DNA of 35,517 bases from Desulfurellales bacterium (GTDB lineage Bacteria; Campylobacterota_A; Desulfurellia; Desulfurellales; Hippeaceae). The first letter of the stretch is position 1, and each line of letters opens with the position of its first letter. Position numbers and translations under genes: made by a program. The stretch covers positions 1 through 35,517 of the forward strand of contig JALWEJ010000055.1 of assembly GCA_027014115.1 (NCBI GenBank), given 5' to 3'. Of this stretch, positions 130-10,789 are shown one piece after another. A model generated the notes under the pieces. That model saw nothing but the letters and a program-made list of their open reading frames with translations, was not told the origin of the DNA and did no database searches.

Positions 130-834
130 TTACACTAAATCTCTTACAAAAGAGTAAAAATCACCGCTTTTTAAGTTTTTAACAGCCTGAGTCCCAATCA
201 CAACACCGTCTGCATACCTGCACGCCTCTTTTATATCATCTTTGTTTTGTATGCCAAAGCCCACTATCACATCGTTTTTGGAATTCTGTTTTGTGTAGAT
301 TACTTTTTTTCTTGTCTCATCATCCAAAGAAAAAGCCCCTCCGGTTATTCCTCTTGTTGATACAAAATATATAAAATCGTTTGATGATTTTTTTATCTTG
401 TCTATATCTGCACAGCTGCTTTCGGGTGTTACAAAATGTATCAAGTTAATACCGTATTTGTTCAACACATTTTTAAGCCTTCTGCTTTCTATATACGGCA
501 AATCGGCTATTATCAAACCGTCTACAAACCCAACTGCTGCAGCAAACTTCTCCATACCGCATCCAAACACAATGTTGGCATAGGTCATAATGTAAAGTTT
601 GTTTCTAAACAGCTTTTTTACCTCTTTTGTGCTTTCTATAAAATTGTTCACATTCTCTTTTTTCAAAACATCAAAAGCTGCAGACTCTATAATACTCCCA
701 TCTGCAACAGGGTCTGAAAAAGGAAAGCCTATTTCCAGAAAATCCATATTGAAATCATCACAAACCCTGACAGCCTCAAAAAAACTATCCTTTGTCGGGT
801 AATCACACACAAGGTATATACCTTTTTTACACAT
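130..834 (-). CDS. trpA: tryptophan synthase alpha chain
   Basis: TrpA cleaves indole-3-glycerol phosphate to indole and glyceraldehyde 3-phosphate and passes indole to TrpB. The family signature [13 protein letters not shown] is at residues 34-46; Glu34 and Asp45 match the catalytic Glu49 and Asp60 of the enterobacterial enzyme. GFGIQNKDD and the late VVIGTQAV segment fit the phosphate-binding end of the TIM barrel. At 234 residues it is shorter than the usual 250-270: the first helix before strand 1 is nearly absent, and the protein begins almost directly at the [11 protein letters not shown] segment. The ATG overlaps the trpB stop by 8 bases and follows a GGAGG ribosome site inside trpB, so this start is well supported. 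It is the last gene of the trp operon. Confidence 0.95.
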
Positions 835-1993
835 TTTTTTCCTCCAATGAAGCTATAATGCCCAAATCTTTGTCGCCTCTGCCTGAAAGATTTATCAAAA
901 CAAGTTTATCTTTAAACAACTCACTGTGTTTTATAACATACCCCACAGCATGAGAGCTTTCGAGCGCCGGTATTATGCCCTCAAGCCTGCTTAAAAGCCT
1001 AAAGGCTTCAAGCGCTTCATTATCAAAACATGCGTCGTATCTTACACGCCCGATATCCTTTAAGTAACTGTGCTCCGGTCCGACACCCGGATAATCCAAT
1101 CCTGCAGAGATCGAATGAACATCCGCAACTTGGCCGTACTCATCCTGAAGAAGATAACTCAATGCACCGTGCAGAATGCCCGGCCTCCCCATAGTTAGAG
1201 TGGCTGAGTGTTTTCCAAGTTCAAGTGATTCTCCGCCGGCTTCAACACCTATCATATCCACACTGTCTTTTACAAAACCGCTGAATATGCCTATGGCGTT
1301 GCTGCCGCCGCCTACGCATGCCACAACACTGTCAGGCAGCCTGCTTTCTGCTTTTAGAATCTGTTTTCTTGCCTCTTTTCCGATTACCTCCTGAAAATAC
1401 TTTACTATTACAGGAAAAGGGTGAGGACCAACGGCGCTGCCGAGAAGATAGTGGGTTGTTTGAACATTTTTAACCCAATCCCTCAATGTCTCATTTATGG
1501 CACTCTTGAGCGTCATACTGCCTTTTTCAACAGATACAACCTCAGCACCCAAAAGCTTCATCCTCTCAACATTTGGCGACTGTCTCTCCATATCCTTTTT
1601 GCCCATATATACAACACACTCCATACCAAGAAGCGCAGCTGCCGTAGCTGTTGCAACACCGTGCTGTCCAGCGCCCGTCTCTGCTATAATTCTTTTTTTG
1701 CCCATAAACTTTGCAAGCAGAATCTGACCCAATGTGTTGTTGAGTTTATGAGCTCCTGTATGCAGCAGATCTTCCCTTTTTAGGTAGACCCTGCAGCCAA
1801 TACGACTGCTTAGATTTTTGGCATAATAAAGGGGCGTTTGCCTGCCTGCATAGTTTTTTTGGTAGTATTCAAGCTCTTTTTTTGCATCCATATTTTTTTT
1901 AAAATTCAAAAAAGCCTCTTCAAGCTCAGATAAAGCCCTCATTAGCGTCTCGGGTACAAACTGCCCGCCGTATTCACCAAAATACCTTTTCAT
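827..1993 (-). CDS. trpB: tryptophan synthase beta chain
   Basis: TrpB condenses indole with L-serine to tryptophan using pyridoxal phosphate. The PLP lysine is Lys83 in HTGAHKLNN, the catalytic Glu is Glu105 in [13 protein letters not shown], and [10 protein letters not shown] is the phosphate-binding loop. The 388-residue length is normal for the TrpB1 type that pairs with TrpA, and the N-terminal [15 protein letters not shown] is typical. It sits 4 bases after trpF and overlaps trpA by 8 bases, so alpha and beta chains are probably translationally coupled. Confidence 0.97.
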
Positions 1994-1997
1994 ATTC

Positions 1998-2564
1998 CTA
2001 TCCCTTCACAACCTTTAAAAATTCTTTCATCTTTTTTTCATCTTTTTTGCCCGGATACGCCTCTATCGAACTGACCAGGTCAACGCCAAACACATCCAAG
2101 TCAATAACAGACTCAACATTATCCAAAGAAACACCGCCTGCAACAAACAGCCTGTTTTTGTGTTCAAAATTCGCAATTAAATCCAAATCAAACGATACGC
2201 CGCTTCCACCGATTGATTTTGTGTAGCTGTCAAACAAAATCAAACCATCAGCAGCACTCACAGGCAGACTTTCTTTTATCCTATATGCCCTGATTGTTTC
2301 GATATTTTCAACATCACGATAAACCTGGGCATAGTCAAGTTGGCAGAAATCCACGGCATATTCTATCTCTTTGTCGTTTTGTTCTACAAAAACACCCACT
2401 TTTTTCACATCTGCATCCACATTTTTAATTATGCTTTTTGCTTTTTCATATGTTACAAACCGTTTGCTTTTTTCATAGAAAACAAAACCTACAAAATCAA
2501 CACCAAAATCAACAGCACACAGAACATCATCAAGGTTTGTCATACCGCAAAATTTTACAAACAT
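1998..2564 (-). CDS. trpF: phosphoribosylanthranilate isomerase
   Basis: TrpF catalyses the Amadori rearrangement of N-(5-phosphoribosyl)anthranilate. The opening MFVKFCGMT matches the family VKICGIT motif, with the general-base cysteine at Cys6. The middle segment LILFDSY then GGSGVSFD corresponds to the catalytic-Asp and phosphate-loop region (usual form LLD...GGTGxxFDW). [13 protein letters not shown] and [16 protein letters not shown] are the C-terminal signatures. At 188 residues it is slightly shorter than the usual 200-210. It lies between trpC (12 bases upstream) and trpB (4 bases downstream). Confidence 0.93.
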
Positions 2565-2576
2565 ACAAAATCCTCT

Positions 2577-3317
2577 TTATAAAACAAATCCCAATTTTTG
2601 AAAATTCTCATCAATACTGCCTTTTAAAAAACCCTCCCCTATCAAAAATCCACTGCAGAACGGTTTTAGATAATCAATATCGTCTTTTGTTTTTATACCG
2701 CTTTCTGCAATCTTTAAATCCGCTTTCGCGCTTTTTAGTATTTTAAGCGCCCTATCCAGCGAAATTTCGAGAGTATCTAAATCACGCGAATTAACCCCTA
2801 TAATATCACATCCGGCATCTTCTGCAATTTTAAGCTCATCTTCTGAGTGCACCTCAACAAGTGCATCCATTCCCAAAGATTTTGCATATCCATAAAGCCT
2901 ATTTAAGCTGCTTTTTTCCAAAATCCTGACTATCAAAAGAACAATATCTGCGCCATTTGCATAAGCTAAATCAATTTGGGCTTCATCTATAATAAAATCC
3001 TTGCACAAAACAGGCATATCAACCATATCGGCAACTTTTTTAAGCCTGTCAAAGCTTCCGCAGAAAAACTTTTCATCGCTCAAAACGCTGATTGCTTTCG
3101 CATATTTTTGATATATGGGCACTATTTCATTCAAATCTATCTTCCTTATCAAACCGGCAGAGGGTGAACACTCCTTGATTTCTGCTATAACATTGAGGGC
3201 ATCTTTTTGAAAGTAATCTTTTATATGGTGCACTGCCCTTTCTCTTTTTGATTCAACCTTTATGTTTTTAATCTCTTTACGTTTTTGTTTTATTATATCC
3301 TCCAAAAACCTGTTCAT
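2577..3317 (-). CDS. trpC: indole-3-glycerol phosphate synthase
   Basis: TrpC closes the indole ring, converting CdRP to indole-3-glycerol phosphate. Family motifs appear in order: VIAEIKECSPSAG (around 43-55, with Lys48), SVLSDEKFFCGS, the KDFIIDEAQI lysine segment, LVEVHSEDEL, IIGVNSRDLDT and IAESGI near the end. The 246-residue length is typical of a monofunctional enzyme, and trpF is a separate gene here. Its ATG overlaps the trpD stop by 4 bases (ATGA). Confidence 0.96.
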   Translation of the reverse strand: MNRFLEDIIKQKRKEIKNIKVESKRERAVHHIKDYFQKDALNVIAEIKECSPSAGLIRKIDLNEIVPIYQKYAKAISVLSDEKFFCGSFDRLKKVADMVDMPVLCKDFIIDEAQIDLAYANGADIVLLIVRILEKSSLNRLYGYAKSLGMDALVEVHSEDELKIAEDAGCDIIGVNSRDLDTLEISLDRALKILKSAKADLKIAESGIKTKDDIDYLKPFCSGFLIGEGFLKGSIDENFQKLGFVL

Positions 3318-4303
3318 CCCTTTAATTCCTCTAATTTTTCCAAAGCTTTGCCGCTTTCTATTGATTCTTTTGTCAGCATAAATGCTTTTTTCAAATCACT
3401 TTCTATACCGCTTACAACAAGACCAAATGCTGCATTGACAGACACTGCATTTTTTAGATGCTCATGCTTATTTTCAAAAACCTCTACCATAAGCTTTGCA
3501 TTTTTTGCAGCATCATAGCCTTTAACGGCACTTATGTCAGCATAGATTCCAAAATCTCTCGGGTCAAACTCAAATCTCTTTTCATTTAAGCCTCTGCGCT
3601 GATAACACGTCGTAATATCCGAAATACTTACCTCATCAAGACCATCCTTTGATGAAACAAATACAACATCGTCCATTGACAGTATCTTGCTCGCCTCAAA
3701 CATAGGATTTAAAAACTCCTCGCTAAAGACACCTATAACATGAAACTTGGGGTTAAACGGATTGCAAAGAGGCCCCAAAAGATTAAAAATTGTTCTTATT
3801 CCAAGCTTCTTCCTGACGCCTGCAACATTTTTCATAGCAGGATGGAAAAAAGGAGCAAACAGAAATGTAAAGTTCTTCTTTTTTAAAACCTCAAATGCCG
3901 CCTCTTTTTTATTATCTATCTTTACACCAAGAGCCTCAAGTACATCTGCCGAACCCGATTTTGAGCTTACTGCCCTGTTTCCATGTTTTGCAACAGGCAG
4001 AAACAGACTGCAGACGATAGCACTTGCAGTGGATATATTAAAGGTCGATTTTTTGTCTCCGCCTGTTCCGACTATATCCAGGCAGTCCATTTCACATTTA
4101 AGAGAGTCTGCGTGCTTTTTCAGAGACTTTGCAGCATGAGATATCTCTTGTGCCGTTTCGCCCTTTTTGGCAAGCAGTGTTAAGAATTCTGCAATATCTT
4201 TATCGCTCAATTTACCCTCAAGCATTGAATCAAATATATTTTCAACAGCCGAACCGTCTAAACCCTCACCCTTTCTCAAAGTCTCAATTTCCTTTCTAAT
4301 CAT
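3314..4303 (-). CDS. trpD: anthranilate phosphoribosyltransferase
   Basis: TrpD transfers phosphoribose from PRPP to anthranilate. The PRPP-binding motif GTGGD is at about residues 79-83, followed by STFNISTASA, the KHGNRAVSSKSGSADVLEALG segment and the catalytic-loop region KDGLDEVSISD. The frame could begin at a TTG two codons earlier, but the ATG at 4303 has a GGGGG ribosome site 6 bases upstream, giving 329 residues. It overlaps the trpG stop by 8 bases and trpC by 4. It is separate from trpG, unlike the fused TrpGD of enterobacteria. Confidence 0.95.
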   Translation of the reverse strand: MIRKEIETLRKGEGLDGSAVENIFDSMLEGKLSDKDIAEFLTLLAKKGETAQEISHAAKSLKKHADSLKCEMDCLDIVGTGGDKKSTFNISTASAIVCSLFLPVAKHGNRAVSSKSGSADVLEALGVKIDNKKEAAFEVLKKKNFTFLFAPFFHPAMKNVAGVRKKLGIRTIFNLLGPLCNPFNPKFHVIGVFSEEFLNPMFEASKILSMDDVVFVSSKDGLDEVSISDITTCYQRRGLNEKRFEFDPRDFGIYADISAVKGYDAAKNAKLMVEVFENKHEHLKNAVSVNAAFGLVVSGIESDLKKAFMLTKESIESGKALEKLEELKG

Positions 4304-4862
4304 AAACAACCCCCAAAAAATTTTTAATTATATCCATACCGTTTTGAGTCAAATATGACTCTGGATGGAACTGAACGCCGTATATCTTTAAACCATCGTT
4401 TTCTACAGCCATAACCTCCTTATCAGACAAAGAGCTTGCACTTATATCAAAACCTTCTAATCTATCCACAACAAGCGAATGATACCTTACAACGCTCATA
4501 GGGTTTGACATATTCTTCAAAATAGTCGAGTCTTTATGCTCTATTTTGTCTGTTTTTCCGTGCATAACAACAGATGCTCTTCTGATTGTTCCTCCAAAAT
4601 AATACCCTATCGCCTGCATACCGAGACATACGCCGAAGATTGGTACTTTTGCTTTAAAATAGTCAATTGCATCAATCGTCAGATTGGAATTTTTCGGATG
4701 AGAAGGTCCCGGTGATAAAACAATACCCTCGATATTTTTTATAGACTTCAGATTGTTTATATTTTCTGTGTTTCTTACAACTACAACATCGTCTCTAAAA
4801 TGCAGAATATAGTGATATATGTTGTAGGTAAAGGAATCGTAGTTATCTATCAATACTATCAT
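4296..4862 (-). CDS. trpG: anthranilate synthase glutamine amidotransferase component
   Basis: TrpG hydrolyses glutamine and delivers ammonia to TrpE. It is a class I amidotransferase: opening MIVLIDNYDSFTYN, oxyanion segment LSPGPSHP, nucleophile Cys79 in GVCLGMQAIG, and His166/Glu168 in QFHPES. An in-frame TTG lies one codon earlier, but the ATG at 4862 is 5 bases after a GGAGG site, giving 188 residues. It overlaps the trpE end by 20 bases, which favours equal synthesis of the two subunits. The same subunit sometimes also serves p-aminobenzoate synthase; no pab gene is visible here. Confidence 0.94.
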   Translation of the reverse strand: MIVLIDNYDSFTYNIYHYILHFRDDVVVVRNTENINNLKSIKNIEGIVLSPGPSHPKNSNLTIDAIDYFKAKVPIFGVCLGMQAIGYYFGGTIRRASVVMHGKTDKIEHKDSTILKNMSNPMSVVRYHSLVVDRLEGFDISASSLSDKEVMAVENDGLKIYGVQFHPESYLTQNGMDIIKNFLGVVYD

Positions 4863-6246
4863 CAATGCCTCCGGCTCTCAAAAGAGCTTTTAATTTGTTT
4901 ATCGTTTCAAAATATTCACTCTCGGGATCGCTGTCATAAACAATGCCTGCCCCAGCTTGCAGCCTTGCTGAATTTTTCTTAAAAACAGCTGTTCTTATTG
5001 TTATCGCCATATCGACATTTGAATCAAAACCGACATACCCGAGACATCCACCGTAACTTGAACGAGGGTATTTTTCCACATCGTCTATAATCTCTATAGC
5101 CCTAACCTTTGGTGCTCCGCTCAGTGTGCCTGCTGGGAATGTGTTTGAAATCAAATCAAATACAGAAACATCATCCTTCAATATTCCGTCAACCTCAGAA
5201 ACAAGGTGTATAACATGAGAATACTCTTCGGCCACCATAAAATTCTTTACAACAACACTGTCTTTTTTGGATATGCGCGATAGGTCATTTCTTGCCAAAT
5301 CAACAAGCATCAGATGCTCGGCTCTCTCTTTTTCATCGCTAAGCAGAATCGTTTTCTGCCTGTTTGTTTCATCTTTTGTTTTTCCTTTGGGTTTTGTACC
5401 GGCTATGGGTTTTATTGTTGCAGTTTTATCCCTTTTTCTTATGTGTATCTCAGGCGATGAACCGACAATGGAAAAATCTCCGAACTTTACAAAATACATA
5501 TACGGAGAAGGATTTATTCTTCTCAAGTGCCTATAGAATTCAAACGGATCAATATCTTCAACATCAAAAAAGTTGCTTATAACAGTCTGAATCACCTCCC
5601 CCTCTTCTATAAGCTTTTTGACATACTTGACTTTATCCATGAATTCATCTTTTGAAAACATGAAAGATGTAATTTTAGGATTGTGATTTTTTGGCTTGTT
5701 TTGGCTGTTTAGAGTTTTGAGCTTTTTATGGAATTCATCCATTTTAGAATCTGCAATTTTGAAGTTTTCATCGGCGCTTAGATTTTTATCAAGTGCATGA
5801 ACATATCCGAGATACATTCTGTCTGTATAGTTATCATACACTAAAAACTTCTCCACTTTGAAAAACATGCCCAATTTTTCAGGCAATTTTTTAAGCGGCT
5901 TTCTTAAAATACCAAACAGCTCTACAGACTCAAAGGTAAAATAACCCACATATCCTCCGCAGAAATCGCCAAGCTGTTTTGTTTTAAACAGCCTTTTTTC
6001 TCTGAAAATATCGGGGTTTGATTTGTAATCTATTACAAATGGTTCATCTAAATCAAAAGACAAAAACGAAAACCTGCTGTATGTTTTATCCTCTTTTGCA
6101 CTCTCAAGCAAAAACGCATTTTTACTGTCCAAAATCTTGGAAAGCAGGGAAACAGGCGTATCCATATCACCGTCAATCTCTTTGTATATCACAACACCCT
6201 CATATCCGCTGTCAAATGCGTAACTAAAATCCTTTTTTTCAGCCAT
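4843..6246 (-). CDS. trpE: anthranilate synthase component I
   Basis: TrpE makes anthranilate from chorismate and ammonia, the committed step to tryptophan. The chorismate-binding domain fills the C-terminal half: PIAGTKPKGKTKDET, DLARNDLSRIS, EYSHVIHLVSEV, TFPAGTLSGAPKVRA and the terminal LQAGAGIVYDSDPESE. The N-terminal half is a divergent TrpE N domain. An ATG four codons earlier contains the GGAGG site itself; the ATG at 6246 is 7 bases after that site and is preferred, giving 467 residues. It is the first structural gene after the attenuator described at 6264-6411. Confidence 0.94.
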   Translation of the reverse strand: MAEKKDFSYAFDSGYEGVVIYKEIDGDMDTPVSLLSKILDSKNAFLLESAKEDKTYSRFSFLSFDLDEPFVIDYKSNPDIFREKRLFKTKQLGDFCGGYVGYFTFESVELFGILRKPLKKLPEKLGMFFKVEKFLVYDNYTDRMYLGYVHALDKNLSADENFKIADSKMDEFHKKLKTLNSQNKPKNHNPKITSFMFSKDEFMDKVKYVKKLIEEGEVIQTVISNFFDVEDIDPFEFYRHLRRINPSPYMYFVKFGDFSIVGSSPEIHIRKRDKTATIKPIAGTKPKGKTKDETNRQKTILLSDEKERAEHLMLVDLARNDLSRISKKDSVVVKNFMVAEEYSHVIHLVSEVDGILKDDVSVFDLISNTFPAGTLSGAPKVRAIEIIDDVEKYPRSSYGGCLGYVGFDSNVDMAITIRTAVFKKNSARLQAGAGIVYDSDPESEYFETINKLKALLRAGGIDDSIDR

Positions 6247-6263: not shown

Positions 6264-6302
6264 AAAAAAGCCGTCCTTAGCTTAATAAGCTAAAAACGGC
6301 TT
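6264..6302 (-). terminator. second attenuator terminator of the trp leader
   Basis: On the minus strand AAGCCGU + UUUUAGCUU pairs with AAGCUAAGG + ACGGCUU around a very small loop (about 16 bp, two G-U pairs) and is followed by six U and then GUUUU. It ends just before the trpE ribosome site. Its 5' arm (6289-6301) can also pair with the 3' arm of the upstream terminator (6316-6328) over 13 bp, which would prevent this hairpin. Confidence 0.85.
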
Positions 6303-6310
6303 AAATAAAC

Positions 6311-6375
6311 AAAAAAGCCGTCTTCAGCAGACCCATCAAAGCTATCCCACTTCAGATGAGCCGCTAAAGACGGCT
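6311..6375 (-). terminator. first attenuator terminator of the trp leader
   Basis: On the minus strand AGCCGUCUUUAGC (6375-6363) pairs with GCUGAAGACGGCU (6328-6316) over 13 bp with one U-G pair, followed by six U. Its long loop holds a second copy of the leader segment GUGGGAUAGC at 6350-6341. The 5' arm can instead form a small local hairpin AGCCG/CGGCU (6375-6371 with 6363-6359). Confidence 0.85.
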
Positions 6376-6411
6376 GTAAAGTTTAAGCAGGATAACTACT
6401 CGCTATCCCAC
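6341..6411 (-). promoter_or_regulatory. alternative-pairing (anti-terminator) segment of the trp leader
   Basis: The 10-base word GUGGGAUAGC occurs twice on the minus strand, at 6411-6402 (overlapping the third Trp codon of the leader peptide) and at 6350-6341 (in the loop of the first terminator). GUUAUCCUGC at 6396-6387 can pair over all 10 positions (some G-U) with either copy. A ribosome stalled on the Trp codons would cover the first copy and leave GUUAUCCUGC free to pair with the second. That would trap the 5' terminator arm. This is the layout of segments 1, 2 and 3 in a classical attenuator; the mechanism is inferred. Confidence 0.75.
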
Positions 6412-6461
6412 CACCAGTTTCTTAATGATAATATCGTATGTTTGCCTAAATACATACTCAT
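6396..6461 (-). CDS. trpL: trp operon leader peptide
   Basis: This is a 21-residue reading frame ATG...TAG with three consecutive tryptophan codons, ending ...LRNWWWDSE. It lies between a good sigma70-type promoter and two intrinsic terminators directly upstream of trpE. Three tandem codons for the rarest amino acid in such a short frame is the hallmark of an attenuation leader that senses charged tRNA-Trp. A GAGG lies 4 bases before the first ATG (6461) and 10 bases before a second in-frame ATG (6455), so either could be used. Confidence 0.9.
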   Translation of the reverse strand: MSMYLGKHTILSLRNWWWDSE

Positions 6462-6470
6462 AACGCCTCA

Positions 6471-6499
6471 TTGATATCAAAATAGTTTAAGAAAGTCAA
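6471..6499 (-). promoter_or_regulatory. trp operon promoter
   Basis: On the minus strand TTGACT (6499-6494) and TATCAA (6476-6471) are separated by 17 bases. The predicted transcription start, near 6464, is only a few bases before the first leader-peptide ATG, so the leader may be almost leaderless or start at the second ATG. Confidence 0.55.
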
Positions 6500-7583: not shown

Positions 7584-8336
7584 CTACAATTTTCTGCATT
7601 TGCTGATTTTCAAATATTCTTCATCCGTATCAATGCCTATAAATTTCCTTTTTAGAAGATTCGCAGCTATGCCTGTTGTGCTACTTCCGGTAAAAGGATC
7701 TAAAATCCAAGCACCTTGTTTTGTTGAAGCAAGAATAATTCTTGTTAAAACAGAAAGTGGTTTTTGTGTCGGATGTTTTCCGCAAGACTTTTCCCATTTT
7801 GCTATTGCGGGCAAAGACCAAACATCTTTCATCTGTTTTCCATCGTTAATCTCTTTCATCAATTCATAATTGAAATAATGGGGGACTTTTGCATTTTTTC
7901 TTGCCCAAATAATTTGCTCTGTTGAATGCGTAAAATAACGACACGAGAAATTTGGTGGCGGATCTGTCTTTTGCCAAGTAACAATGTTTAAGATCTTAAA
8001 GTCAAGTTCTGTTAAAATTTGTCCGATACTAAATATATTGTGCATTGTTCCGCTAATCCAAATTGTGGCATCATCTTTCATTTTATTCCGGACAAGTTTA
8101 AGCCATCTCCGGTTAAAGTCATTCAGATATTCAAAACCTTTTGATTTATCCCATTTACCTTTGTTTACACTGGTAATTTTTCCGTTTTTAATGGTTAAAC
8201 CATCATTTGACAAAAAATAAGGCGGATCGGCAAAAACCATATCAAATTTAAAATCGAATTGTGGCAACAACTCGAACACATCACCTTGTAATAAAGTAAA
8301 TGCTTTGTCTTTTGATTTGAAATATGGTGTAATCAT
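7584..8336 (-). CDS. dpnA: DpnA-like DNA adenine methyltransferase (beta class)
   Basis: This is a 250-residue amino-methyltransferase with the catalytic motif DPPY at 37-40 near the N terminus and the AdoMet motif DPFTGSSTTG at 213-222 near the C terminus. That order defines the beta class. GKHPTQKPLSVL before the AdoMet motif is typical. In the DpnII system DpnA is the second methylase, acting on GATC and able to modify single-stranded DNA. It is the last gene of the restriction operon, overlapping the preceding gene by 4 bases. Classical dpnII order is M, A, R; here A comes last. Target specificity is inferred from the neighbours. Confidence 0.88.
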   Translation of the reverse strand: MITPYFKSKDKAFTLLQGDVFELLPQFDFKFDMVFADPPYFLSNDGLTIKNGKITSVNKGKWDKSKGFEYLNDFNRRWLKLVRNKMKDDATIWISGTMHNIFSIGQILTELDFKILNIVTWQKTDPPPNFSCRYFTHSTEQIIWARKNAKVPHYFNYELMKEINDGKQMKDVWSLPAIAKWEKSCGKHPTQKPLSVLTRIILASTKQGAWILDPFTGSSTTGIAANLLKRKFIGIDTDEEYLKISKCRKL

Positions 8337-8881
8337 CTTCTATTATGTGTCGCTATTGAAACAATTTTAAAAATATCTTTTCCTTCTTTTAATGCTTCTA
8401 ACAAATTTTTGAACATATAAGCTGTATCTAAATTAGTTTTTTCTTGAAACATTAACAGTTTTGCGATAAGCAGTAAGAACTTGACGCTATATTCCCCTTT
8501 CTCAACCAATTCAGGATATTGTGTCGCTTCATTATTTACTTGCTCTAATAAATCATCATTTAGTAAATTGTTTCTTTCTTCTTCACTCGTCAACGGTGAC
8601 ACATTATTACTCCAATAATTTATTAAGAAATCCAAAAACTCTTTTGTTTTATTTTCTTCTAAACTCATTTTTATTAAAACATCAACAGCCCAATGAATAT
8701 GTTTTGGGGTTCTTATTCTCGACCAGTTATTGTTTTCTTTTTGTCGATATTTTATTAATAAATCATATTCAGATAAACTACCTTGATATACGGCTAATAT
8801 GTATTGCCCATTAATCCTAAATATTTTTAATGGGTGATATTCTTGTCCATTTCTTTTATAAATCATATTTGGTAAACTCAT
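8333..8881 (-). CDS. unrecognised protein within the DpnII-type operon
   Basis: This 182-residue protein has no motif I can name. It starts MSLPNMIYKRNGQEYHPLK, has a short beta-rich N-terminal part with several Tyr and Ile residues, and is helical and acidic from about residue 85 on. It has no signal peptide, membrane segment or Cys cluster. It overlaps both neighbours by exactly 4 bases (ATGA), between the restriction enzyme and the DpnA-like methylase, so it is co-translated with them. No PD-(D/E)XK or helix-turn-helix is obvious. A control, nuclease-partner or anti-phage accessory role is possible but unproven. Confidence 0.75.
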   Translation of the reverse strand: MSLPNMIYKRNGQEYHPLKIFRINGQYILAVYQGSLSEYDLLIKYRQKENNNWSRIRTPKHIHWAVDVLIKMSLEENKTKEFLDFLINYWSNNVSPLTSEEERNNLLNDDLLEQVNNEATQYPELVEKGEYSVKFLLLIAKLLMFQEKTNLDTAYMFKNLLEALKEGKDIFKIVSIATHNRR

Positions 8882-9780
8882 ATCAATATCCTTTTTAAAA
8901 CACCATCTCTTAGCATTTCCAAATTCAGCAAATAGTCCGCTTTATCAAAATATTCTCTTAAAGGCTTTAAGGTAGATTTCCAACCAGCACCATCAGTTAT
9001 CCATATAAATTCTATGCCTTGATTATTCCAATACTCATTCATTTTGATGTATTCAGTAGCTGTAGATTTAAGTTTTGAACCCCCGCCACCGTAAAAATTA
9101 ACTTCTATAAAATAAAGTTTTCCCTCTTTATTTATGGCAAAATCAATTATTCGAGATGATTTATCTACCTTAACATCAATATTCCATTTCTCTTTTATCT
9201 TTTTAGCCGTTGCTTGCGGCATATATTCAATTTCCAACTCATTGCAAGTGTCTCTCACAAATTCTTCAACAAGGTTTTCCATCAAAGTGCCACCTCGGTT
9301 CTTTCTGCCGTTACTATCCAATCCAACCTCAACGCCGGTTGCATAACCCACCAAATTTTTAATTTTCTTATCCTGTAACAGCTCCCCTAATCCACTTTTT
9401 AAAATAAAATCAGCAAACGATTTTATCTCTTCTTTTTCAAAAGTTTTCTTTGAAAAATTAAATTCACGGTAAATAAAATTTCTTGTATCAATTAAAACTT
9501 CTAATGACTTATCTCTGATTGCAAGCAGTAATGGAATAGCTTTTATAGTTTCGGGATATTTCGATAATAACTCAACAGTCTCCTTGTATAAGTCTTTTTT
9601 GCCAATAAGATAATTTAATAGATTTAACTCTTTTTCAATAGGTTCAATATTTTGCAATACTTTATTCCAATTTACAAAATAACTCCATTGTGTAATTTTA
9701 TGTTTGAATGATGAGGATATTTCTTCAAAAAGTTCATTCTCTGTTTTATTCAGCAATTGACATAATTTTTTCATAAGCAT
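8878..9780 (-). CDS. dpnB: type II restriction endonuclease, DpnII/MboI family (GATC)
   Basis: This 300-residue protein matches the DpnII restriction enzyme family (Pfam PF04556). Diagnostic stretches are VEVGLDSNGRKNRGGTLMEN (151-170) and FIEVNFYGGGGSKLKSTATE (about 225-243). Asp213 (IIDFAI) and Glu226 (FIEVN) are the likely metal-binding residues of a variant PD-(D/E)XK centre. Family members cut before unmethylated GATC. The ATG start lies 35 bases inside the upstream dpnM-like gene and lacks a clear ribosome site, so expression may depend on coupling, which fits the need to methylate first. Confidence 0.9.
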   Translation of the reverse strand: MLMKKLCQLLNKTENELFEEISSSFKHKITQWSYFVNWNKVLQNIEPIEKELNLLNYLIGKKDLYKETVELLSKYPETIKAIPLLLAIRDKSLEVLIDTRNFIYREFNFSKKTFEKEEIKSFADFILKSGLGELLQDKKIKNLVGYATGVEVGLDSNGRKNRGGTLMENLVEEFVRDTCNELEIEYMPQATAKKIKEKWNIDVKVDKSSRIIDFAINKEGKLYFIEVNFYGGGGSKLKSTATEYIKMNEYWNNQGIEFIWITDGAGWKSTLKPLREYFDKADYLLNLEMLRDGVLKRILI

Positions 9781-10726
9781 TATTTGTAATTAACAACTCT
9801 GTTAATTCTCCTCGTTTATTTGGGTTAGAATTTATGTTTCTTCTTGCCATTACTCTTTTGATATTAAATCCACGGTATAATTCATCAAAAAAATTGTCAT
9901 TTGGATTTTTCCCTTTCACATCGGAGTTGCTCAAAATCCATTGATAACCCAATAAATCAATCTTTTCACAAAATTTTGCAAGTCTGATTTGTTCGCTGTC
10001 ATCAAACTCATCTTTTGCATAAGAATTGAAACTTGATGTATTACTTAAAGGTTTATATGGCGGATCAAAATAAAACAGTGTCTCTTGGTTAGCATATTTT
10101 AAAGTTTCTTCAAAATCACCATTTAATATGGTTACTTTTTGTAAAATCTGATTTACAGATCTTAAATTATTTTCATCGCAAATCATTGGGGTTTTATAAC
10201 TGCCTATTGGAACATTAAACTCGTTTTTGCGATTTACACGATACAATCCATTAAAGCAAGTCCGGTTAAGAAAAATAAATAGAGCGGTTTGAATTGTTTT
10301 ATCAGAAGTTCTGCTGTTAAATTGTTTTCTTTTGGAATAGTAATATTCCTTTTTAATATCCGCCTTATCTTTTAAAGAGTGATATTCTTCTTCCCAATCT
10401 TTTAATATGGAAATTAACTCATCTACATTTTCTTTTATTGTTAGATACGAATTGGTTAAGTCTGTATTAATATCATTTATTACTGCCCGTTCAATATTCG
10501 GATATTTTTGTAAGATCCAAAAAAGAACTGCCCCACCACCAACAAATGGTTCGATGTATGTAAATCTATCTTGTTTAATATGGTCTGGGATAGCATTGTC
10601 GATTTCATTTAATAATTGTGCTTTTCCACCAGCCCATTTTACAAAAGGTTTTGCTGTTTTATTAAATACTCTGACTTTTCTTTCATCTTCTAAAAATTTC
10701 ATGCTCTCCACACTAAATTTACACAT
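9746..10726 (-). CDS. dpnM: Dam/DpnM-like DNA adenine methyltransferase (alpha class)
   Basis: This D12-class N6-adenine methylase has AdoMet motif FVKWAGGK at about 28-35, FVGGGAV, and catalytic DPPY at 221-224, an order that is alpha class. It protects GATC in double-stranded DNA in DpnII-type systems. The frame stays open upstream to a TTG at 10789, but that stretch holds a good promoter (TTGACA/TATATT), so translation must start later. I chose the ATG at 10726 (326 residues, with GAG 7 bases upstream); the ATG at 10702 (318 residues) is the alternative and closer to the usual start just before KPFVKWAGGK. First gene of the operon. Confidence 0.92.
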   Translation of the reverse strand: MCKFSVESMKFLEDERKVRVFNKTAKPFVKWAGGKAQLLNEIDNAIPDHIKQDRFTYIEPFVGGGAVLFWILQKYPNIERAVINDINTDLTNSYLTIKENVDELISILKDWEEEYHSLKDKADIKKEYYYSKRKQFNSRTSDKTIQTALFIFLNRTCFNGLYRVNRKNEFNVPIGSYKTPMICDENNLRSVNQILQKVTILNGDFEETLKYANQETLFYFDPPYKPLSNTSSFNSYAKDEFDDSEQIRLAKFCEKIDLLGYQWILSNSDVKGKNPNDNFFDELYRGFNIKRVMARRNINSNPNKRGELTELLITNNAYEKIMSIAE

Positions 10727-10750
10727 AATATTACTCAGATATCCTTCATA

Positions 10751-10780
10751 AATATACCTATATTGATATTCGTTTGTCAA
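10751..10780 (-). promoter_or_regulatory. promoter of the restriction-modification operon
   Basis: On the minus strand a perfect TTGACA (10780-10775) is followed after 18 bases by TATATT (10756-10751). Transcription would start near 10744, about 20 bases before the methylase ATG at 10726. It is the only good promoter seen for the four genes. Confidence 0.6.
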
Positions 10781-10789
10781 AAACTTCAA

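What the first reader, a model, noticed from the sequence alone, without database searches (positions are those of the whole stretch)
6264..6461. Two-stage trp attenuator with four interchangeable arms
The trp leader encodes a peptide with three tandem Trp codons and then two intrinsic terminators in series. Seen in the sequence: segment 2 (6396-6387) pairs with either of two identical GUGGGAUAGC copies, one on the Trp codons and one in the first terminator loop. The 3' arm of terminator 1 (6328-6316) pairs with the 5' arm of terminator 2 (6301-6289) over 13 bp. Inference: when the ribosome stalls, segment 2 takes the second copy, terminator 1 is blocked, its freed 3' arm then disables terminator 2, and both locks open together. 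Classical attenuators have one terminator; a cascade like this is unusual.
Basis: partly seen in the sequence, partly recalled or inferred. Interest (0 to 1): 0.78.

Follow-up and report, generated by a model that had tools for sequence, protein, structure and literature searches.

The report
Double-lock tryptophan operon switch
The start of this bacterium's tryptophan operon RNA carries two 'stop transcription' hairpins in a row that look wired together like dominoes, so that a ribosome starved of tryptophan opens both at once; the same wiring is conserved in dozens of relatives across at least four bacterial phyla.

Summary
Upstream of trpE (minus strand, 6461-6246) lie a leader peptide with three Trp codons, a 10-nt motif repeated on the Trp codons and inside terminator 1 (T1), a segment that pairs with either copy, two intrinsic terminators (-38 and -21 kcal/mol), and a 13-bp cross-pairing between the T1 3' arm and the T2 5' arm. 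The genome is a Desulfurellales-like MAG.

I found the same layout in 47 trpE leaders from four phyla. T1-3'/T2-5' complementarity is species-specific: own arms pair better than swapped arms (p=5e-5 in the window's phylum; p=0.00025 in a second). The control pairing (T1 5' arm with T2 3' arm) is weaker (p=0.01 and p=0.16). That favours selection on the cross-pairing over simple hairpin duplication.

Best reading: a relay version of classical ribosome-mediated trp attenuation. It has not been tested experimentally, and coarse folding kinetics reproduce it for the window and its sister species but not for most relatives.

The leader AUG sits near the predicted transcription start in 41 of 43 leaders. 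Rfam's orphan 'trpB motif' (RF04312) in Streptococcus also has a Trp-codon leader ORF and the same relay logic.

The parts
6494..6499 (-). -35 hexamer TTGACT (17-nt spacer to the -10)
   Evidence: the same TTGAC[AT] placement is found in most relatives
6471..6476 (-). -10 hexamer TATCAA; ATG of the leader 9 nt further on, so the leader ORF is near-leaderless
   Evidence: the strict consensus scan did not list it
6396..6461 (-). leader peptide ORF MSMYLGKHTILSLRNWWWDSE*
   Evidence: sequence; WWW followed by a short tail conserved in relatives
6402..6411 (-). segment A (copy 1, GTGGGATAGC) on the Trp codons
6387..6396 (-). segment B (segment 2, GTTATCCTGC), just after the stop codon; pairs with A or A'
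6363..6375 (-). segment C, T1 5' arm; pairs with C', or forms its own 6-bp hairpin (6375-6359) when B:A' is present
6341..6350 (-). segment A' (copy 2, GTGGGATAGC) in the apical part of T1
6316..6328 (-). segment C', T1 3' arm; pairs with C (T1) or with D (anti-terminator 2)
6311..6375 (-). terminator 1: hairpin 6375-6316 (-38.3 kcal/mol) and T tract 6316-6311
6289..6301 (-). segment D, T2 5' arm
6269..6281 (-). segment D', T2 3' arm
6264..6302 (-). terminator 2: hairpin 6302-6268 (-21.0 kcal/mol) and T tract 6269-6264
4843..6246 (-). trpE (ATG at 6246, GGAGG at 6256-6252), first gene of trpE-G-D-C-F-B-A (130-6246)

Best explanation
It is a ribosome-mediated tryptophan attenuator in which one sensor (three Trp codons) drives two intrinsic terminators through a relay of mutually exclusive hairpins. 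With enough Trp, the ribosome reaches the stop codon and covers B, so T1 (C:C') forms. If polymerase escapes, C' is already tied up and T2 (D:D') forms as a second lock. With no translation, A:B forms and the outcome is the same. When the ribosome stalls on the Trp codons, B is free and pairs with A'. C then folds on itself, and T1 is delayed because its core is enclosed. Free C' captures D as it emerges, so T2 is pre-empted and trpE is transcribed. Shown: the segments, their conservation, and the species-matched co-variation of B:A' and C':D. Inferred: termination at each site, Trp control, and the order and kinetics of events.
For: Anatomy. WWW leader plus two terminators before trpE in 19 leaders of the window's kind, all directly ahead of trpE, in 5 leaders of the G045 phylum, and in 1 + 22 leaders of two further phyla. 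B:A' and C':D co-vary between groups. In the second phylum C':D is specific (p=0.00025) while the duplication control C:D' is not (p=0.16). In one genus there T2 has a wholly different sequence yet still pairs with C' (-12 to -14 against -5 to -6 for the control). Within the Hippea group a C':D pair goes C:G, U:G, U:A. In several lineages C' also pairs with T2 loop bases that are outside the T2 stem (L008 p=0.011, L012 p=0.005, L010 p=0.012, L018 p=0.014). C':D is the local minimum before D' emerges in all 19 leaders. For the window the barrier from B:A' to T1 is 19.8 kcal/mol and from C':D to T2 8.7. Simulation of the window: stalled on the third Trp codon, T1 0.00, C':D 0.86, T2 0.00; at the stop codon T1 1.00; no ribosome T1 0.99. 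Footprint arithmetic: a ribosome at the stop codon covers exactly B.
Against: No expression or termination data. At equilibrium T1+T2 wins in every state. The coarse simulation reproduces the full switch only for the window and its sister L002; it is partial for L016 and fails for L003, L005, L008, L009 and L014. In the window itself stalling at the first or second Trp codon still let T1 form in about 75%. The findpath method ignores pseudoknots and tertiary structure. T1 and T2 share GC-rich arms, so part of the C':D complementarity is expected anyway; for the window itself the control pairing C:D' is as strong (-23.1 against -20.9).
Confidence: 0.72

Rival explanations
1. Two independent locks. 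T1 is an ordinary attenuator; T2 is a back-up terminator that arose as a duplicate of T1, and C':D complementarity is a by-product of that descent. T2 would be weak or overcome by other means.
For: T1 and T2 arms look alike in the window and several relatives; for the window, L003 and L004 the control C:D' is as strong as or stronger than C':D.
Against: C':D is more specific than C:D' (p=5e-5 against 0.01; p=0.00025 against 0.16). C':D is kept where the two terminators are unlike: the f3 family -16 to -22 against -2 to -4, and genus g122 -12 to -14 against -5 to -6. Pairing extends into T2 loops. An unregulated T2 of -21 to -30 kcal/mol with a 6-T tract would silence the operon.
Confidence: 0.17
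2. T2 acts mainly after transcription: its hairpin sits just upstream of the trpE Shine-Dalgarno sequence and sets translation or mRNA stability, while T1 alone does the attenuation.
For: T2 ends about 8-12 nt before the trpE Shine-Dalgarno sequence.
Against: T2 does not include the Shine-Dalgarno sequence; it is a near-perfect stem followed by a T tract in nearly all leaders, the hallmark of a terminator.
Confidence: 0.06
3. The cascade works but the input is not only Trp-codon stalling (for example another factor binding T1).
For: Some recurring shared primary sequence around T1.
Against: Three adjacent Trp codons at the same place relative to A, B and the stop codon in nearly all leaders; no Rfam riboswitch or T-box hit.
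Confidence: 0.05

Closest known systems
Classical ribosome-mediated trp attenuator (E. coli trpL; S. meliloti trpL, PMC7298713)
   Same: Short ORF with tandem Trp codons, alternative pairings controlled by ribosome position, intrinsic terminator ahead of trpE; in S. meliloti the transcript also begins at the leader ATG.
   Different: Two terminators instead of one. The anti-terminator partner A' lies in the apical part of T1 rather than in its basal 5' arm. An extra anti-terminator (C':D) couples T1 to T2.
Rfam RF04312 'trpB motif' (orphan riboswitch candidate, Narunsky et al. 2024, PMC11109978)
   Same: Hairpin followed by a terminator, the hairpin's 3' arm being the proposed anti-terminator. 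In Streptococcus I find a Trp-codon ORF just upstream and the same pairing relay.
   Different: The first hairpin is not itself a terminator. The window scores 25 bits and L014 41 bits against a cut-off of 59; unrelated tandem terminators also reach 32-45 bits, so this is analogy, not membership.
ermK leader of Bacillus licheniformis (from memory; paper not held)
   Same: Ribosome stalling in a leader ORF switches between a fold with two Rho-independent terminators and one without.
   Different: Senses a macrolide rather than an amino acid; I could not compare its arm-to-arm coupling.
Tandem attenuators of Salmonella mgtCBR (PMC3641672)
   Same: Two regulatory steps in one leader.
   Different: There each step has its own ORF and signal, they act independently, and no intrinsic terminators are recognised.
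rimP leader of some Gammaproteobacteria (Naville and Gautheret 2010, PMC2965389)
   Same: A second terminator in tandem, with a potential anti-terminator.
   Different: No leader peptide with regulatory codons is described in the passages read.

Membership tests
Ribosome-mediated trp attenuator (general kind) | Short translated ORF with adjacent Trp codons upstream of a trp gene | tested here: met
   WWW ORF at 6461-6396 ahead of trpE; conserved. Translation itself not shown.
Ribosome-mediated trp attenuator (general kind) | Mutually exclusive terminator and anti-terminator pairings placed so that ribosome position chooses | tested here: met
   A:B, B:A' and C:C' compete; B begins at the last base of the stop codon.
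Ribosome-mediated trp attenuator (general kind) | Termination responds to Trp supply | not testable with these tools
   Needs experiment.
Rfam Trp leader family | Match above the family's gathering score | tested here: not met
   No hit at gathering; not listed up to E=10.
RF04312 trpB motif | Score at or above 59 bits | tested here: not met
   25 bits; best relative 41.4.
T-box leader | T-box model match | tested here: not met
   No T-box hit in the window or leader region.
Tandem attenuators (mgtCBR type) | Two separate sensors acting independently | tested here: not met
   One Trp-codon ORF only; no second ORF between T1 and T2 (about 14 nt in the window).
Two-terminator ribosome-controlled leader (ermK type) | One stalling event removes both terminators | tested here: inconclusive
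   Predicted for the window but not for all relatives; no experiment.

The most novel reading that the evidence does not exclude
There is a widespread, undescribed class of 'relay' amino-acid attenuators, in which the 3' arm of one hairpin is the anti-terminator of the next, so one ribosome stall topples a chain of hairpins. It controls trpE with two coupled terminators in at least four phyla, usually from near-leaderless leader ORFs. The Rfam orphan RF04312 in Firmicutes is its one-terminator version and is a Trp-codon attenuator rather than a riboswitch.
Probability: 0.5. Interest if true: 0.7.

Novelty: new variant of a known kind. Interest (0 to 1): 0.6.

Why it matters
Attenuation is a textbook switch taught with one terminator. 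If this reading holds, evolution has repeatedly added a second terminator that is not a passive back-up but is wired to the first through shared arms. That should give tighter repression without losing induction, and a sharper (AND-like) response. It gives a clean experimental test of hairpin relays, and it points to a likely function for an orphan RNA family with more than 900 members.

Tried and rejected
A generic pattern (TGGTGG plus two T tracts) over 386 genomes was useless: matches were about as frequent as in reversed-pattern controls. I replaced it with retrieval of regions upstream of trpE. Membership in RF04312 was considered after an end-to-end alignment and rejected: below cut-off, and any tandem terminator can score 32-45 bits. 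My first automatic segment boundaries were wrong because the duplex finder extended A' into C'; redone with fixed A' motifs. In the loop test, loops of 3 bases carried no information (window, L003, L004). The coarse kinetic simulation was kept as support only for the window and L002, and its failures elsewhere are counted against the model. Equilibrium folding with copy 1 masked does not discriminate. Literature searches for tandem or two-terminator trp leaders found nothing in the held library, which is incomplete.

Full report
WHAT IS THERE. The window is contig C55 of a 1.72-Mb genome. Its closest named relatives are Desulfurellales/Desulfurellaceae/Hippea MAGs. A trpE-G-D-C-F-B-A operon runs on the minus strand from 6246 to 130. 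In order: promoter TTGACT-17-TATCAA (6499-6471); leader ORF 6461-6396 (MSMYLGKHTILSLRNWWWDSE*); segment A (6411-6402, on the Trp codons); segment B (6396-6387); T1 (6375-6316, -38.3 kcal/mol) with second copy A' (6350-6341) in its apical part; 6 T; T2 (6302-6268, -21.0 kcal/mol); 6 T; the trpE Shine-Dalgarno sequence.

CONSERVATION. All 18 trpE leaders retrieved with full-length context in the first three families of this phylum (window included) carry a WWW leader ORF followed by two terminator hairpins, as does L035, a related uncultured contig. In family f3 the T1 tract is interrupted (TATTTTTG) and T1 was not called automatically. The one leader of the fourth family (L057) has a single terminator. 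Looking upstream of trpE elsewhere: the phylum of G045 has 5 leaders with the same layout, the genome G265 has 1, and the phylum of G278 has 22. That is 47 leaders in four phyla (phylum names are not shown by the tool). In three of these (L223, L227, L230) my automatic caller found only one terminator; the second hairpin is visible by eye. Single-terminator Trp leaders also exist (for example L026, L114, L189), so the double form is not universal.

ARE THE PAIRINGS SELECTED? B:A' is species-matched (own -17.7, swapped -11.7 kcal/mol; none of 20,000 permutations as good) and so is C':D, the T1 3' arm with the T2 5' arm (own -21.5, swapped -15.2, p=5e-5). The obvious objection is that T2 is a copy of T1, which would make C':D complementary for free. 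Then C:D' (T1 5' arm with T2 3' arm) should be just as good. It is not: own -16.3, p=0.01 in the window's phylum. In the second phylum C':D is p=0.00025 and C:D' p=0.16. Telling cases: family f3 (C':D -16 to -22; C:D' -2 to -4); genus g122, whose T2 is unlike T1 (C':D -12 to -14; C:D' about -5); L008 with 19 contiguous cross-pairs; the Hippea group, where one cross-pair goes C:G, U:G, U:A. In L008, L010, L012 and f3 the T2 loop itself is complementary to C' (p 0.005-0.03). For the window alone the two pairings cannot be told apart (-20.9 against -23.1), so the argument rests on relatives.

HOW IT PROBABLY WORKS. A ribosome at the stop codon, with a downstream edge 15 nt from the first base of the P codon (an assumption), covers exactly B. 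Stalled on a Trp codon it leaves B free. With B free the fold before C' emerges is B:A' (13 bp) plus a self-hairpin of C (6 bp), -23.2 kcal/mol. That self-hairpin, also predicted in most relatives, explains how T1 can be blocked although its basal arms are not used by B:A'. Once C' is out, T1 is more stable, but the direct-path barrier is 19.8 kcal/mol. C':D forms before D' is made, and its conversion to T2 has a barrier of 8.7 kcal/mol, about 0.15 per second at 37 C. So the switch has to be kinetic, as in other attenuators. A coarse co-transcriptional simulation of the window gives T1 0.00/T2 0.00 when stalled on the third Trp codon, T1 1.00 at the stop codon, and T1 0.99/T2 1.00 (after escape from T1) without a ribosome. 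It also gives T1 about 0.75 when stalled on the first or second Trp codon, and it does not reproduce the switch in L003, L005, L008, L009 or L014. I take the simulation as weak support.

WHAT IS KNOWN. This is a ribosome-mediated trp attenuator by every feature that could be tested, but no Rfam trp-leader model matches. The nearest described structure is RF04312, the 'trpB motif', an orphan whose authors saw an anti-terminator in the right shoulder of its first hairpin and could not rule out a classic attenuator (PMC11109978). The window is not a member (25 against 59 bits). But eight Streptococcus RF04312 loci (L202-L209, 48-77 bits) all have, ending 15-19 nt upstream, a short ORF (14-17 aa) with SD-like purines and two Trp codons spaced W-Q-x-W shortly before the stop. 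The gene downstream is TrpX, a tryptophan transporter protein, in both loci tested. The segment after the stop pairs with the first hairpin's 5' arm (about 12-14 bp) and that hairpin's 3' arm pairs with the terminator's 5' arm. This is the same relay with one terminator. Two-terminator leaders under ribosome control have a precedent in ermK (from memory; not held). I found no description of arm-coupled double terminators in trp leaders in the held library, which lacks most subscription papers.

LEADERLESS ORF. In 41 of 43 leaders the leader ATG is 5-11 nt from the -10 hexamer, so the AUG is within a few nt of the predicted +1 and most have no Shine-Dalgarno sequence. The S. meliloti trpL transcript is known to begin at its ATG (PMC7298713). 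In the window the GAGG at 6469-6466 is probably upstream of, or at, the start of transcription.

VERDICT. Observation confirmed. The cascade idea is well supported by comparative evidence and untested by experiment. New variant of a known kind.

Noticed in passing
L202-L209 (Streptococcus RF04312 loci): All eight credible 'trpB motif' hits have an upstream leader ORF with two Trp codons and a relay of pairings, ahead of trpX where tested. The orphan riboswitch candidate is probably a Trp-codon ribosome-mediated attenuator.
   Followed up: partly
window 6499-6461 and the leaders of L002-L018, L035, L029, L077-L080, L211-L234, L241: The leader-peptide AUG lies 5-11 nt after the -10 box in 41 of 43 leaders: near-leaderless leader ORFs across four phyla.
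   Followed up: partly
L057 (family f4 of the same class), 1326 onwards: This more distant relative has a Trp leader with only one terminator, so the double form was gained or lost within the class.
   Followed up: no
window 7584-10789: A DpnII-type restriction-modification cluster (CcrM-like methyltransferase, DpnII endonuclease, D12-class methyltransferase) directly upstream of the trp operon, same strand.
   Followed up: no
L221, L227, L228 (genus g122): T2 has been replaced by an unrelated hairpin of about 30 kcal/mol that nevertheless keeps a pairing of about 10-14 bp with T1's 3' arm (L221, L228).
   Followed up: partly
L114/L242 (G128): A second Trp-codon leader (YWWSWWK) with its own terminator, besides the trpE-proximal one on the same contig and strand.
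   Followed up: no
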